From the IMG/VR virus record IMGVR_UViG_3300044701_002789, positions 62,001 through 126,000 of that record: 64,000 nucleotides of DNA. One strand, written 5' to 3'. A model generated the notes under the pieces. That model was not told where the DNA came from. It saw only the letters and a list, made by a program, of their open reading frames with translations, and did not search any database. The position numbers and the translations under genes are program-made. Below are positions 18,814 through 26,474 of the stretch, piece after piece (within the stretch, counting starts at the first letter, position 1; each line of letters starts with the position of its first letter). The DNA is from a virus.

Positions 18814-21312
18814 CTAAGTGAAAAAGGAATCAAGAGTTGCTTTCCTTTCGGAATTCCACCCAATAGATCTCAAAATAGTATTCAACGGTTCAAGAAATCC
18901 CTTTTCAAACTGCGTATCATAATCCACATAAGGAATTAGGTCAAGTTCTTTTGGAAACTCCTGAATAAAAGAAATCACATTCTCATAGATTGGGTTTGGT
19001 TTTTTCAAATAGCAAAATTTTACCTTTTCGCCATTTTGAATCAATGAATACTTTTTATCCAACTCTTTCTTTTTAATATAATAGTTAAAAAGAAGAGCAC
19101 CACGAACTGCTATGGGAGTACTTTTTTCGTAGATTGATTGGACACAACTGTATTTTGTCAGATCATTCACAGATCGGGGGAAAGAAATGTCTTCTGGTGT
19201 TAGAGTTTTAAATTCTGAACGACAGTTTTCCACAAATGAAATTATATCATCTTCAGTTCCGCTCATAAGGATTTTAAAGGAATCTTTTAGCATTTTGCGA
19301 CATGGTGCCGGTGTTGAAGATTTGATTGCTTCAATTCCTTTAATTTTAAGTTTCGGTTCAGAATACCGCACACCTTCACTATCCCATACGCTCAAAATGT
19401 AACGCTTTTTTGCAGTCCAAATGCCACGCTCAGCAATACACTCCCTCTTCATTACCATTTTTTGCTCATAGGCATTTACATAGTCGGCCAGTTTTTGGTA
19501 AGAACTTTCAATATACTTTTCAAATTCCACCTGACAGACCTTATCAAGGAACGAAACAACGCTTTCAGTAATTTTCTCTCTTCCAGCGAATACCTTTTCA
19601 ACCAAAGGACCCATATTGATATAGAGAGAGTCAGTATCAGAAGCAATAACATAGTCTACTCCATCAGTTTTCAACGTCTTGTTTAAATAAGTGTTCATCT
19701 TATTCATAATCCACTGAATGGATACTTGCCCAGAAAGAGTAATGGCCTCAGCATTTTCTAATTTATAGTATCTAAAGTATTGATTTCCGATAGCACCATA
19801 AGCAGAGTTAAGTTGAATTTTTCTTGCCATCTGAATATTATTACATCTGGCAATCTCTTTTATGAGATCTTTCTTCTTTGTTTTTTCATACTCCTGTTCG
19901 GCAGCAAGCATTTTTTTCTTGAATATGGAACGTTCACTATAAATTTTTTCCATCAACTCTGGAAGAAAACCACGAACATCTTTCCTGAACATCGCCCCAT
20001 TTGCACATATGGCATAATTATTATATTTCTCAAAATCAAGTTCTTGATTAAGAATTCTATCAACATTTACTGTAGGATGTTTTTCATCCATAAGTGTTTC
20101 TGGAGAAATATTATATTGCATGATGAGGTGGGGATAAAGTGAGTTCAAGTCAAAACTCACAACCCATTCATAAACACCAGGAATCGGTTCTTTTACATAT
20201 GCTCCAGCATACTTTTCATTCTTTTCTGTTCTGTCTCTTTGTGGAATGACAACATTTCTTTTCTTTAAGTAGTTGTATATAATATTGTCCCACATGCGAA
20301 CTTGAGAAAAAACATCCTCATAGTTTGTTTTTGCATCATATGCCATAGTAATGGCAAGTTCAATAAGTTTTAACTTATCTTCTAGACGGTCTACAAGTTC
20401 TACGTCAACAATGTTATATTCTACAAATTTTTGCCATCCTTTAGTATAAAAATCCTTGAAGGTATCAAACTCCGAGTGGTCAAGTTTCTTTTGCCCCAAC
20501 TCTTGTGAGGCAATGTAATCAAGTCGGTAAGACTCTTGTGGTGGAGTTCCAGGAGACCACTTATACAGTTTTAAATAATCAAGTTGGGTAATTCCGCCTA
20601 TATCTATGCAAATTTGATTCCGATTATTTATCCAAACTTCATTTTGCGTAATGAGACCCCAAGGCGAAAATCTTTTCATTCTCTTTTCACCAAGAACACG
20701 CAACAAACGCCCACAAATATAAGGAACGTCAAAAAATTCAATGTTCCATCCAGTCAAAACTTCTGGAGGATTAAACTCCCAATAATTTATGAAGCGATTA
20801 AGCAAATCATATTCAGAAGCACATTCAATGTATTTTACATTTTTTTGTTTGTTCGTAAAGGGTTTGGTTCCCCAAGTAGTTATTTGTTTGCTTGAATAGT
20901 CCTGAATTGTAATTAGCAGTATTTCTTCATCGCAGGATTTTGTATCCGGAAAACCATTTTCAGATGTAGTCTCAATATCAAGGGTTACTAATTTAATCTT
21001 TGTGATATCAAACTTAATTTCATCTTCCGGATACTTGTCGGAAATATACTGATAGACATATCTTTCATTTCCATATACATTAAAGTTTTCAATTCCATCA
21101 TACTTTTTATATAATTCTCTACATTCTCGCACAGATCCTGGTTTAATTGCTTCTACATATTCACCATCTAAGGTTTTATATTTTGTAGGAATATTTGATT
21201 TCAGAAAAAGAGTAGGTGAATACTCTTCTTTGAACATAACATGCTCACCATTATCATAACCTCTAACCAGGAAATTATTCCCGATCATTTGGACATTTGT
21301 GTAAAATTTCAT
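18814..21312 (-). CDS. 43: DNA polymerase family B (T4 gp43-like)
   Basis: An intact 832-aa polymerase with proofreading. Exo I is TLDIETT (Asp112, Glu114). Later come the palm motif A SFDLNSLYPHLIM, the fingers motif KIQLNSAYGAIGN, motif C ASDTDSLYI and the thumb-side KKRYIL. The C-terminus (LDSFFT) looks like the clamp-binding tail that contacts gp45. Unlike some T4-like phages it is not split or interrupted by an intron. Its start overlaps the stop codon of the upstream Sm-like ORF (ATGA). Confidence 0.97.
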   Translation of the reverse strand: MKFYTNVQMIGNNFLVRGYDNGEHVMFKEEYSPTLFLKSNIPTKYKTLDGEYVEAIKPGSVRECRELYKKYDGIENFNVYGNERYVYQYISDKYPEDEIKFDITKIKLVTLDIETTSENGFPDTKSCDEEILLITIQDYSSKQITTWGTKPFTNKQKNVKYIECASEYDLLNRFINYWEFNPPEVLTGWNIEFFDVPYICGRLLRVLGEKRMKRFSPWGLITQNEVWINNRNQICIDIGGITQLDYLKLYKWSPGTPPQESYRLDYIASQELGQKKLDHSEFDTFKDFYTKGWQKFVEYNIVDVELVDRLEDKLKLIELAITMAYDAKTNYEDVFSQVRMWDNIIYNYLKKRNVVIPQRDRTEKNEKYAGAYVKEPIPGVYEWVVSFDLNSLYPHLIMQYNISPETLMDEKHPTVNVDRILNQELDFEKYNNYAICANGAMFRKDVRGFLPELMEKIYSERSIFKKKMLAAEQEYEKTKKKDLIKEIARCNNIQMARKIQLNSAYGAIGNQYFRYYKLENAEAITLSGQVSIQWIMNKMNTYLNKTLKTDGVDYVIASDTDSLYINMGPLVEKVFAGREKITESVVSFLDKVCQVEFEKYIESSYQKLADYVNAYEQKMVMKRECIAERGIWTAKKRYILSVWDSEGVRYSEPKLKIKGIEAIKSSTPAPCRKMLKDSFKILMSGTEDDIISFVENCRSEFKTLTPEDISFPRSVNDLTKYSCVQSIYEKSTPIAVRGALLFNYYIKKKELDKKYSLIQNGEKVKFCYLKKPNPIYENVISFIQEFPKELDLIPYVDYDTQFEKGFLEPLNTILRSIGWNSERKATLDSFFT

Positions 21313-22504: not shown

Positions 22505-22528
22505 AAAAAGGGGAGTGTAGAACTCCCC
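22505..22528 (-). terminator. rho-independent terminator of regA
   Basis: The minus strand forms GGGGAGT-TCTAC-ACTCCCC followed by TTTTT, 5 nt after the regA stop codon. Confidence 0.88.
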
Positions 22529-22533
22529 ACTTT

Positions 22534-22974
22534 TCATTCGGTTTCCTGAACCTTTACTTTTTTCCCGATATTATATTTTTGCTCAAGTTCCCACTCTCCT
22601 TTCTCCCGATAAGAAATTACCTTGATCTGGTTAAGTGGTGCAATGTCTAATATTTTATCAGTATCAACTACTGCGATTAGACCCCAATCGGAAAGCAAAC
22701 GTATAATTCTATTTCTTCGTTGAATATCGTTTACCGTAAGATTTGCGTGCTTACCATCAAGAGCAAAAAGTTCCTTAAAACTTACAATATAATATCTACC
22801 TTGCTTATGTAAAATGTGGCAAGATTGATACAGTTTCTTTTCTTTTCTTGATGCAACCCCAATCCTTGTCAAAGTCTCACGAACTTTCAAGAAATCATCA
22901 GGTTCATTAAGAATGACCTCCACCATCATGTTTGGAGACCAGTTTACTTGTGGTTCAATTGTTTGATTCGTCAT
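22534..22974 (-). CDS. regA: translational repressor RegA
   Basis: A 146-aa RNA-binding repressor of early mRNAs. Recognisable blocks are VEVILNEPDDFLKVRETLTRI, GRYYIVSFKELFALDGK and RRNRIIRLLSDWGLI, as in T4 RegA, with a C-terminal extension (about 20 residues, basic). It sits in the usual place after gp62, with a 4-nt ATGA overlap. In T4 it binds translation starts of replication genes including its own operon; the same is expected here. Confidence 0.93.
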   Translation of the reverse strand: MTNQTIEPQVNWSPNMMVEVILNEPDDFLKVRETLTRIGVASRKEKKLYQSCHILHKQGRYYIVSFKELFALDGKHANLTVNDIQRRNRIIRLLSDWGLIAVVDTDKILDIAPLNQIKVISYREKGEWELEQKYNIGKKVKVQETE

Positions 22975-23357
22975 TTTGTTCCGCCTGTGTCAAGTCGTTT
23001 TTTTATAAAGTCAATCTGTTCTTTATTTAGAATTTTTAAAGCTTGTAATGCTTTTTCATTATTATAACCATAATATTTTTTTATGTATTCTAAATCCGTG
23101 ACCTTATCTTTTCGGATCCAAGGAGAAAATCTTTTCCTTTTCCTTAAAGTATTTAGATAAAACGCATATTGCATATCTTTATCTATATGACTATTCATGT
23201 TCATTTCATTAGCAAATAATATTGCATCAATATGACCAGATAGACATTTATTTATAATATAAGGTGGATAATCCTTGATGGAAGTTGGATCTTCGTTCAT
23301 CAAGTTCTTTTTAGTATTATTAATAGAATTCAACCAATCCTTTAATTCATGTGTCAT
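22971..23357 (-). CDS. 62: clamp-loader small subunit (T4 gp62-like)
   Basis: A 128-aa subunit that, with gp44, loads the gp45 sliding clamp. The block DYPPYIINKCLSGHIDAILF is characteristic of gp62. It is shorter than T4 gp62 (187 aa), as is usual in cyanophages. It is coupled by 4-nt overlaps to regA downstream and to the DruA-like gene upstream. Confidence 0.9.
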   Translation of the reverse strand: MTHELKDWLNSINNTKKNLMNEDPTSIKDYPPYIINKCLSGHIDAILFANEMNMNSHIDKDMQYAFYLNTLRKRKRFSPWIRKDKVTDLEYIKKYYGYNNEKALQALKILNKEQIDFIKKRLDTGGTK

Positions 23358-24418
23358 CTAATAATCTCCAATTCACTGCCGGGTTCCCATATCTCTAAGG
23401 TAGTTCTCAATCTGTTTTCTTCAATTAGTTTTTCATACCTTTTAGATGATTTTTTCTTCCACCAAGTAATAACATCATTGACATCATGCTTAAACTCAGA
23501 AATATAATACCTTTTCTTTTCTGTTAATTTTTTAGCATTTTCAATTGCAGTATTGAATTGATTCAACTTGGTCTCATCCTTTAATGAATTTCGGATAATA
23601 GAAATCATCTTTTGCTGGATTTTCAATTTTTTGGAAGACTTGTCTGCAGGAACCAATCGTTCCCCATTATTTCTCTCATTGAACCACCAAAAGAAATCTC
23701 TAAATTCATCATCATGGAATAATGGAAGAAAATTACTTTCAGTGTCCCCAATATGTTTGAGATATGGTTTAAGACCATCATACATGGAAACGCCCTTAGT
23801 TGTTCCGTACAATGAAGTAGTCTCAAAATATTTTAAATCTGTACCATACTTTGTATCAAATTGATTTTTGAGTTCTTTAGAGCACGCTAAAAGCGCAAGA
23901 AGTTTACCCCCAAGATAATTATATCCAAATGGTTGAACAGGTACAATATTAAACGCCATCACGAATTCATTATTAATAGTTTCCAGAGGAAGAACTTTAT
24001 TAAAGTATTCGTTTCTTGGTTTTGAGTTAATAGTCGGAGACCCAAATCTAACTACCCCAAGAACCTTTTTAGTGTTAGTTTCTTCAACTATCCATTTATG
24101 GGTTCTACCTGGAATTGCTTCTTCTACGGCATTTGAAGCAGTTAAATTTAAAGTTTCCGAATACAACCACTGATTAAATTTAGATGTAGGTTTGGAACTT
24201 GTATCAACAACATGAATACAAATATCCATATCATTTGGATGCATTTGAAATGCATCAAACATTTCAGTTTCCGCACCAAACAAACATCCAGATCTAGAAG
24301 TTATTCTGTCTTTCTTCACAAAACGAAGATAATCATCAATACGATTAAATTGAGAATAGTAATTTATAAACTTATCTGCCGCATAAATGGCATCTTGTTC
24401 GGTTAAAATCAGTGTCAT
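23354..24418 (-). CDS. DruA-like (DUF4338) protein inside the clamp-loader operon
   Basis: A 354-aa protein. From about residue 105 the order of motifs follows the DUF4338/DruA family: VLGVVRFGSPTI, then MAFNIVPVQPFGYNYLGGKLLALL, KYGTDLKYFETTSLYGT and LKHIGDTES. DruA is a component of the bacterial Druantia anti-phage system; its biochemical role is unsettled. The assignment is from memory of the family and only part of it is matched. The C-terminal 90 residues are lysine-rich. It lies between gp44 (13 nt) and gp62 (4-nt overlap), so it is made with the replication proteins. A nucleic-acid role is inferred. Confidence 0.7.
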   Translation of the reverse strand: MTLILTEQDAIYAADKFINYYSQFNRIDDYLRFVKKDRITSRSGCLFGAETEMFDAFQMHPNDMDICIHVVDTSSKPTSKFNQWLYSETLNLTASNAVEEAIPGRTHKWIVEETNTKKVLGVVRFGSPTINSKPRNEYFNKVLPLETINNEFVMAFNIVPVQPFGYNYLGGKLLALLACSKELKNQFDTKYGTDLKYFETTSLYGTTKGVSMYDGLKPYLKHIGDTESNFLPLFHDDEFRDFFWWFNERNNGERLVPADKSSKKLKIQQKMISIIRNSLKDETKLNQFNTAIENAKKLTEKKRYYISEFKHDVNDVITWWKKKSSKRYEKLIEENRLRTTLEIWEPGSELEIIR

Positions 24419-24431
24419 TTAAATTCACACC

Positions 24432-25376
24432 CTAACGAAATTCGCATTCACACATTAACTCAGTAAGACATGCCAAAAGATTGATCTCTTGGTCCGCAAC
24501 AAATGCACACTGATATTGATACTTTGCAATAATAAGAACCGCAGCAGGAATTGACAATGGAACTAAGTGCTCATAAAATGCGTCATATATTCTTCTCATT
24601 ATCCTGGATGTATCATTATCCAAGTTGGAAACTACCCATTTACGAACTTCCGGAAAGTTCTTAGATTTCATATTTTTGATCAACTCCGTTACAGAAATAT
24701 CAGAGAAAGATGCGAGAATACCCGCATCAATTTTTCCACTTGTAGAATATCTCTGACATTCATTGAGAATACGTCTAAAATCTGGGAAATATTTTGTGAT
24801 CAGTTCAGCGAGAATTTTGTCTTCATATTGAATGTTTTCTAAATCTAAGATTGTTTGCAGTCTTTTAAAGAATGCTCCCGCAAGTTGCGTCTTTTGCTTT
24901 CCTTTAATTGAGAAATCAATTACTGCGCAGCGAGAATGAAGGGGTTCAATAATTTTGTTTTTATAGTTGCATGTGAAGATAAATCTACAGTTATTGTAGA
25001 ACGCTTCAATGTTTGCTCGCAAAAGAAGTTGAACATCATTGCCAGTATTATCTGCTTCATCAATAATAATAACTTTGTGCTTGGAAGATTCAACTAAAGA
25101 TACAGTAGAAGCAAAATTCTTTGCTTGATTTCTCACCGTGTCCAAAAATCGTCCTTCATCAGATCCATTAATAACATATGAATCAACACCCAGTTCATTG
25201 CAAAGCGCCTTTGCAATTGTGGTCTTACCAATTCCAGGAGGTCCAGAAAGCAGAAGATTTGGAATCTCTCCTTTCTCCACAAACTCCTTAAATGTTTTTT
25301 TGATGTCATCAGGAAGAATACAATCCTCAATTACTTGGGGACGATATTTTTCAAATAAAAGAAATTCACTTGTCAT
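24432..25376 (-). CDS. 44: clamp-loader large subunit (T4 gp44-like)
   Basis: A 314-aa AAA+ ATPase. Walker A is GPPGIGKT (residues 45-52), Walker B is IIIDEADN (around 106-113), and the arginine-finger motif SRC is in LHSRCAVIDF. It forms the clamp loader with gp62. It is 8 nt downstream of the 104-aa ORF and about 430 nt from gp45. Confidence 0.95.
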   Translation of the reverse strand: MTSEFLLFEKYRPQVIEDCILPDDIKKTFKEFVEKGEIPNLLLSGPPGIGKTTIAKALCNELGVDSYVINGSDEGRFLDTVRNQAKNFASTVSLVESSKHKVIIIDEADNTGNDVQLLLRANIEAFYNNCRFIFTCNYKNKIIEPLHSRCAVIDFSIKGKQKTQLAGAFFKRLQTILDLENIQYEDKILAELITKYFPDFRRILNECQRYSTSGKIDAGILASFSDISVTELIKNMKSKNFPEVRKWVVSNLDNDTSRIMRRIYDAFYEHLVPLSIPAAVLIIAKYQYQCAFVADQEINLLACLTELMCECEFR

Positions 25377-25808: not shown

Positions 25809-26474
25809 TCATCCAAATTTGCTGTCAGGTTCAAGAGCAACCCAGTAAGAAACTGGCATGTCAGTGTTTTTAAAATGACAAAGCAGTTTTCTAGAAATCA
25901 CAACTTCATAGTTTCCTGGAAGAATTTTAATATTTTCAATTTTGAAATTAAATACAAACTCTTCATCAGTTTCCCCAACAATAATTGAGAAATCGTTTGA
26001 GGTATCATTCTTTTTATCGCGGACAAGCAATTTAATCACTCCCGCTTCACCAACAACAGAAAGATCTGGCAACTGATAAATTGCAGAAGCCTTGATCAAC
26101 TTTTCAAGTTGCTTAGTATCCACCAAAAAGCAAACATCACTACTAGGAAGAGTAATTTCTTTATCTGGTGGTGTTACTATGACACTAGGTTGTGCAAAGA
26201 AATACTTAGAGCGACTTCTTCCCTCTCGGATAACAACATAACTATCATTCTCAAAATCCAGTTCAGCATCCTTATGTAACAATAGTCCATTGAGAAACTG
26301 GTTGAGATCATAAATACCAAAATCTCTTGGGATCTCTTCTTCAATGGTTGCTTCAGCAAGAATTGTTTTTGAGACACTAATAGTTTTTAAAGTATTTCCT
26401 TGCTTAAAAAATAAAGACTGATTAATATTAGAAAAGTTTTTAATAATAGCAAAGGTGGTTTCAGAAAATTTCAT
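25809..26474 (-). CDS. 45: DNA polymerase sliding clamp (T4 gp45-like)
   Basis: A 221-aa trimeric clamp that tethers the polymerase and, in T4, also activates late transcription with gp55. Typical features are MKFSETTFAIIKNFSNINQSL at the start and, later, VDTKQLEKLIKAS and FNFKIENIKILPGNYEV. The stretch 25700-25808 between this gene and the next holds no convincing gene or terminator. The 3' end is closely followed by an AT-rich region. Confidence 0.92.
   Translation of the reverse strand: MKFSETTFAIIKNFSNINQSLFFKQGNTLKTISVSKTILAEATIEEEIPRDFGIYDLNQFLNGLLLHKDAELDFENDSYVVIREGRSRSKYFFAQPSVIVTPPDKEITLPSSDVCFLVDTKQLEKLIKASAIYQLPDLSVVGEAGVIKLLVRDKKNDTSNDFSIIVGETDEEFVFNFKIENIKILPGNYEVVISRKLLCHFKNTDMPVSYWVALEPDSKFG

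What the first reader, a model, noticed from the sequence alone, without database searches (positions are those of the whole stretch)
23354..24418. Phage homologue of anti-phage protein DruA inside the clamp-loader operon
Motif order follows DUF4338/DruA, a component of the Druantia defence system, yet the gene is coupled to gp62 and follows gp44. It may be a replication factor from which the defence gene derived, a decoy against Druantia, or a weapon against rival phages.
Basis: partly seen in the sequence, partly recalled or inferred. Interest (0 to 1): 0.65.

Follow-up and report, generated by a model that had tools for sequence, protein, structure and literature searches.

The report
DruA-like phage gene swapping with DNA-methylase
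Marine viruses of cyanobacteria carry, in the middle of their DNA-copying operon, a relative of a bacterial antiviral protein (DruA) that sits in the same place where related viruses carry a DNA-methylating enzyme and is repeatedly swapped with it, which suggests that it, too, chemically marks DNA.

Summary
23354-24418 (-) encodes an intact 354-aa protein ('X') in the order gp44 - X - gp62 - regA of a T4-like cyanophage (258-kb record). X is a true DruA-family protein: Pfam DruA 6e-10, profile match to verified Druantia type I DruA (97%, 1e-11), 20 shared conserved columns, GNAT fold. The resemblance is already in print (Phold paper: six Synechococcus phages, including a homologue, S-PRM1). 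New here: in loci picked by gp44, not by X, the gp44-gp62 interval holds a D12 DNA-adenine methyltransferase in 84 of 116, X in 18, both in 0. On the gp44+gp62 tree of the window's clade the two swap at least 11 times (X as one clade rejected, p-AU 1e-4). Of 32 records with a DruA domain 31 lack the methyltransferase family; 14 of 16 without it have it. The Druantia DruA model's top-ranked PDB match is phage Mu's base-modifying Mom (tied with other GNATs). Best reading (0.5): X is a DNA-modifying acyltransferase-fold enzyme, an alternative to adenine methylation made during replication. Not shown: activity, substrate, protection; palindrome avoidance gave no signal. Replication factor, Druantia decoy or weapon are less likely.

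The parts
23354..24418 (-). DruA-family GNAT-fold protein ('X'), 354 aa
24432..25376 (-). gp44 clamp-loader ATPase, upstream border of the swapped interval
22971..23357 (-). gp62 clamp-loader small subunit, downstream border; overlaps X by 4 nt
22534..22974 (-). RegA translational repressor, next gene of the operon
22510..22528 (-). terminator-like hairpin after regA (pattern match only; reads as one on both strands)
25809..26474 (-). gp45 sliding clamp, upstream in the replication cluster
18814..21312 (-). gp43 DNA polymerase, downstream in the replication cluster

Best explanation
X is a DruA-family enzyme with a GNAT (acyltransferase) fold that modifies DNA bases (or the nucleotides that go into DNA) while the phage genome is being copied. 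It is an alternative to the D12 N6-adenine methyltransferase that most sister phages carry in the same interval before gp62. Shown: family, fold, operon position, mutual exclusion with the methyltransferase, repeated swapping. Inferred: that X acts on DNA, that the donor is an acyl-CoA-like cofactor held at the conserved GGK turn (G170-G171-K172), and that the benefit is protection of phage DNA from host or rival nucleases, with frequent swapping because no single mark protects against all hosts.
For: Interval census of loci chosen by gp44: 84 D12, 18 X, 0 both, 14 neither, of 116 with both borders in view; X abuts gp62 in 15 of 18, D12 in 63 of 84. X-anchored loci: 143 of 145 have X in the interval, 0 have D12 there. 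Swaps: X against D12 needs 11 changes in the 52-row window clade, X as one clade rejected (dlnL 246, p-AU 1e-4), state hardly clustered on the flanking-gene tree (97 of 500 shuffles as low); 18 changes over 130 loci. Records: DruA domain and D12 both 1, DruA only 31, D12 only 14, neither 2, of 48. The D12 genes look intact: DPPY in 88 of 88. Fold is GNAT. The DruA model's top-ranked PDB match is Mu Mom, 8bv8_A, Z 10.1, rmsd 5.0, 180 residues; Mom is at rank 9 in the viral library for both models and is the first hit named as a known DNA modifier.
Against: No significant sequence-profile link of X or DruA to Mom (probability at most about 1%). Mom's Z is tied with many protein and small-molecule GNATs, Mom is not among the rows listed for X itself, and unnamed or otherwise named proteins stand above it in the viral lists. 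The interval is a variable region that also holds 2OG-Fe(II) oxygenases, HNH and other genes, so sharing a place does not prove shared function, and competition for one site can give exclusion without shared function. One record, S-SCSM2R, has both X and a D12 gene elsewhere and one X record has an N6/N4 methyltransferase. Palindrome avoidance does not differ between X and D12 flanks after 16 tests (GATC 0.69 v 0.61, p 0.23). Records for searches were partly chosen by X.
Confidence: 0.5

Rival explanations
1. X is a protein acyltransferase that acts on clamp loader, clamp or a host replication/transcription protein to favour phage replication.
For: GNAT fold whose listed PDB matches are mostly protein or small-molecule acetyltransferases; operon with gp44 and gp62.
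Against: Does not explain why X and a DNA methyltransferase exclude and replace each other; X is also found at other places (S-B68 beside gp47/gp46, HTVC008M after gp43).
Confidence: 0.2
2. The gp44-gp62 interval is simply a hotspot for accessory genes; X is an unrelated accessory gene and its exclusion with D12 is only competition for one site moved by recombination and homing endonucleases.
For: Interval also carries 2OG-Fe(II) oxygenases, HNH, a weak GIY-YIG (SegE) hit, PD-(D/E)XK.
Against: Other accessory genes coexist with X or D12 in one interval, yet X and D12 never do (0 of 116; 0 of 145 X-anchored intervals); 31 of 32 records with a DruA domain show no D12 anywhere, including those whose DruA-domain gene is outside the interval.
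Confidence: 0.17
3. X is a counter-defence protein (decoy or dominant-negative DruA) against host Druantia, or a weapon against rival phages.
For: Real DruA homology; the DruA comparator is from a full DruABCDE system.
Against: The core residues are kept over a wide range of phages (20 columns; 18 of 18 interval copies with GGKL and TTSL motifs), as for an enzyme; a decoy does not explain exchange with D12. Druantia in marine Synechococcus or Pelagibacter was not examined.
Confidence: 0.08
4. X is an ancestral replication factor from which the defence gene DruA was derived.
For: Position in the clamp-loader operon.
Against: Missing from most relatives (X in 18 of 116 intervals; 31 phage records with X against 421 with a D12 relative); eight intervals have gp44 and gp62 with less than 150 bp between them.
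Confidence: 0.05

Closest known systems
DruA of Druantia type I (PF14236 / DUF4338)
   Same: Same family and fold; 20 columns with the same residue in at least 85% of 69 bacterial DruA, 21 second-type phage and 41 X sequences; same order of secondary structure.
   Different: No DruB-E next to it; sits in a phage clamp-loader operon; lacks DruA's insert before the TTS motif and the profile match ends before the C-terminal third.
DruA-like CDS of six Synechococcus phages (Phold, PMC12774648)
   Same: The same protein family: S-PRM1, named there, is hit H20/H21.
   Different: Clamp loader and Mom do not occur in its main text, and exchange with a methyltransferase is not in the passages I read.
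Mom of phage Mu (PF25680)
   Same: GNAT-superfamily enzyme that modifies adenine in DNA (PMC7824862, passages); top-ranked PDB match of the DruA model (tied) and a viral-library match of X.
   Different: No sequence-profile similarity; Mom's Pfam model does not hit X.
Cyanophage D12 DNA adenine methyltransferase (Dam, PF02086)
   Same: Same operon interval, alternative to X.
   Different: Another family by Pfam; not a homologue.
Second phage DruA family (Pelagibacter phages Mosig and HTVC008M)
   Same: PF14236 at 80 bits for Mosig; X against this family 99.8%, 2e-27 over 240 columns.
   Different: 432 aa in Mosig, 380 aa in HTVC008M; other place in the genome.

Membership tests
DruA (PF14236) | Score over Pfam's gathering cut-off | tested here: met
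   39.1 bits v 27; all 41 homologues match at E<=1e-3
DruA (PF14236) | Conserved core residues of Druantia DruA | tested here: met
   20 shared columns incl. R135, G170-G171-K172, Y191, T200, S202, G205, Y213
DruA (PF14236) | GNAT fold | tested here: met
   X model pLDDT 88.1; GNATs fill the PDB matches over residues 59-313; DUF4338 called GNAT in PMC10853773 (passage)
Druantia defence system | DruE helicase and other Dru genes beside DruA | tested here: not met
   Neighbours are gp44, gp62, regA; the N-terminal part of a DruE finds nothing in the 258-kb record, a search without positive control
Mom (PF25680) | Match to Mom profile or detectable sequence homology | tested here: not met
   No Pfam Mom hit at E<=1; hhalign with nine Mom sequences at most about 1%
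Mom (works like) | GNAT-fold domain like Mom's | tested here: inconclusive
   Mom matches the DruA model best but tied and X at E 1.5e-3, TM 0.52 on the target; Mom's 8bv8 is not in the rows listed for X
DNA-modifying enzyme | Modified base in DNA dependent on the gene | not testable with these tools
   Needs nucleoside mass spectrometry or long-read sequencing
T4-type replication core protein | Present in all relatives at this place | tested here: not met
   X in 18 of 116 gp44-gp62 intervals

The most novel reading that the evidence does not exclude
X, and by extension DruA of Druantia, makes an undescribed (perhaps acyl-type, Mom-like) base modification in DNA; cyanophages switch between this mark and N6-methyladenine by exchanging a cassette in the clamp-loader operon, and Druantia type I uses DruA to mark self DNA.
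Probability: 0.25. Interest if true: 0.88.

Novelty: new variant of a known kind. Interest (0 to 1): 0.62.

Why it matters
The papers on Druantia that I reached (listings and passages) give no molecular role for DruA. A natural exchange between a DruA relative and a DNA adenine methyltransferase, needed at least eleven times on the tree of one phage clade, is a comparative clue to its substrate and makes the question testable in culturable cyanophages. It would also point to a modification switch built into the replication operon of common marine phages.

Tried and rejected
Sequence link to Mom: hhalign with 13 Mu-type Moms and with nine more diverse Mom sequences gave at most about 1% probability; rejected as family membership. 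PDB sequence search for X and for a Druantia DruA found no relative. VIA-align for X: Mom's 8bv8 is not among the 50 rows shown, which excludes nothing. Restriction-site signature: a first pooled table seemed to show weaker avoidance of CATG and GGCC in X loci, but with the interval removed and the clade controlled only GGCC (p 0.011) and AATT (p 0.028) stood out of 16 tests, which I treat as nothing. Search for wider Mom diversity in genomes gave no match, with no positive control. Literature: searches for DUF4338, DruA/Druantia/Mom/structure, momylation/GNAT, Druantia mechanism, Mom/DNA modification, cyanophage with DNA adenine methylase and clamp loader (none), cyanophage/methyltransferase/gp62 (three papers on other phages), DruA with phage or defence, 8BV8/Mom/phage Mu; no listed title or abstract start reports an X-D12 exchange, in this open-licence library only. 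Three papers opened with 'find' had no occurrence of the terms asked for.

Rows dropped before counts: of 80+79 gp44-anchored loci, 43 lacked one border and were not counted (25 and 18); L011, which came up again in the second gp44 scan, was not in the census but is in the tree. That tree holds 130 loci: intervals with usable gp44 and gp62 from the gp44 scans, plus L011, the window and named phages, some of which were picked by X. In one search, 76 of 80 DruA, 79 of 79 second-type and 29 of 29 Mom hits passed the length limits and, with one reference each, were thinned to 69, 21 and 13; of the 69 DruA kept, 55 loci with at least 7 kb downstream were counted. In one search one of the 32 DruA records (S-T4) is under Pfam's cut-off.

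Full report
What is there. The ORF at 23354-24418 (-) is intact, 354 aa, between gp44 (24432-25376) and gp62 (22971-23357), with 13 nt before it and a 4-nt overlap after it; regA follows with another 4-nt overlap. The window is part of a 258,362-base IMG/VR virus record. Profiles confirm gp44, gp62, RegA, gp45 and gp43, so this is the replication cluster of a T4-like phage; the nearest named relatives of X are in Synechococcus phages, the closest, S-SM2, of Kyanoviridae.

Family. Pfam DruA hits residues 101-199 at 6.3e-10, above the curated cut-off, and all 41 aligned homologues match it. The DruA used for comparison, on a Pseudomonas plasmid, is part of a full type I system: its five genes match PADLOC DruA, DruB, DruC, DruD and DruE. 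X against three plasmid DruAs gives 97.5% and 6e-12, against 69 bacterial DruAs 97.4% and 1e-11 over 180 columns, and against a second phage family 99.8% and 2e-27. Twenty columns hold the same residue in at least 85% of each of the three sets. Of 55 DruA loci with at least 7 kb downstream, 50 have an open frame of 900 aa or more there, as expected for DruE.

Fold. AlphaFold2 gives X a pLDDT of 88.1. GNAT proteins fill the PDB matches (best Z 10.3, rmsd 2.9, 134 residues). A DruA model (pLDDT 81.7) has the same order of elements and the same four best viral matches: three giant-virus proteins and one phage fragment. Its top-ranked PDB match is Mu Mom, inactive mutant S124A (8bv8_A, Z 10.1, rmsd 5.0, 180 residues), within 1 Z of many other GNATs. 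Mom of a Salmonella phage is rank 9 for both models. Mom is a GNAT-superfamily enzyme that modifies adenine in DNA (PMC7824862, passages). Sequence profiles show no link to Mom. Two depositors' product names point the same way, 'methylcarbamoylase mom' in S-SCSM2R and 'iron-binding protein' in S-CREM1 (that Mom binds iron is recalled, from no call); how they arrived at the names is not stated.

Prior art. The Phold paper (PMC12774648; passages read) reports DruA-like proteins in six Synechococcus phages, TM-score 0.73, and shows the one of S-PRM1, which is hit H20/H21. PMC10853773 (passages) calls DUF4338 a GNAT domain. The resemblance is therefore not new.

The exchange. Five phages without X were opened at the gp44-gp62 interval: four hold a DNA methyltransferase there (S-RIM14, ACG-2014a, S-CAM3, and P-TIM40, where the stretch read ends before gp62) and ACG-2014f does not; Pfam makes all four D12 adenine-specific enzymes. 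I then took IMG/VR loci by gp44 in two scans. Of 159 loci, 116 show both borders: D12 in 84, X in 18, neither in 14, both in 0. All 88 D12 ORFs of at least 250 aa keep DPPY, and all 18 X keep both core motifs. X abuts gp62 in 15 of 18, D12 in 63 of 84. In 145 X-anchored loci with both borders, X is in the interval in 143 and D12 in none.

The two alternate on the tree of the flanking genes. Over 130 loci X needs 18 changes, 8 of them forced by well-supported branches (quick tree, with two long branches meeting at L003 and L332). In the window's clade of 52, on a careful tree, it needs 11 (7 forced); holding X together costs 246 log units (p-AU 1e-4), and its clustering is close to that of shuffled labels (97 of 500 as low). 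Recombination between gp44 and gp62 could inflate the count.

Whole records. Of 48 records, 31 have a DruA domain and no D12, 14 D12 and no DruA, 1 both (S-SCSM2R, its D12 gene far from the interval), 2 neither. The DruA count includes the Mosig record, which has the second family only. ACG-2014f, without D12 in the interval, has it at two other places. N6/N4 methyltransferases (PF01555) are in 6 of 48, one of them a DruA record. Many of these records were chosen because they carry X, some are fragments and a few are duplicates (for example two S-CAM9 records), so the Fisher p of 4e-9 is descriptive only. In the phage collection X has 31 records (one of them, Mosig, by the second family) and the D12 enzyme 421.

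Limits. The interval is a variable region: 68 unassigned ORFs of 150 aa or more lie in the 116 intervals, most of them beside D12; examples scanned were 2OG-Fe(II) oxygenases, HNH, JmjC, a weak GIY-YIG hit and, in one, a PD-(D/E)XK nuclease. X is also found elsewhere: beside gp47/gp46 in S-B68, where gp44 directly overlaps the next gene, which matches gp62, and after gp43 in HTVC008M, whose interval holds a 2OG-Fe(II) oxygenase. In 25 of 27 HTVC008M-type loci neither border is seen around X. Restriction palindromes gave no signal.

Mechanism. Most likely X is translated with the clamp loader and modifies bases as DNA is made, doing the job that a D12 methyltransferase does in sister phages; frequent exchange fits selection for changing the mark. 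The GGK turn at the start of the helix after the central strand lies where GNATs bind the cofactor's phosphates; that placement is my inference from the fold and was not computed. What the exchange shows is equivalence of place and mutual exclusion; equivalence of function is the inference.

Noticed in passing
L002:5551-6849; L326:5974-7116; L242-L321: A second DruA family, 432 aa in Mosig, is common in marine phage contigs (145 related stretches), near recombination endonuclease, peptidase and 2OG-Fe(II) oxygenase genes in the two named phages; HTVC008M carries both families.
   Followed up: partly
BFVD A0A3G4ZXG3, A0A5K0UAJ3, A0A3G4ZRA1: Giant-virus proteins (Faunusvirus, Yasminevirus, Dasosvirus) are the best viral fold matches of both X and Druantia DruA.
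   Followed up: no
gp44-gp62 interval, e.g. L461:1514-2101, L374:5226-5780, L480:4942-5565: HNH, weak GIY-YIG (SegE) and PD-(D/E)XK genes lie in the interval; a 191-197-aa family, one member with the weak SegE hit, occurs in 5 loci, all with X. They could drive the exchange.
   Followed up: partly
L093-L119, L242-L321: GATC is strongly avoided in these mostly pelagiphage-type loci (observed/expected 0.21 and 0.18) but only mildly in cyanophage loci.
   Followed up: no
window 22510-22528: Terminator-like hairpin after regA that reads as one on both strands.
   Followed up: no
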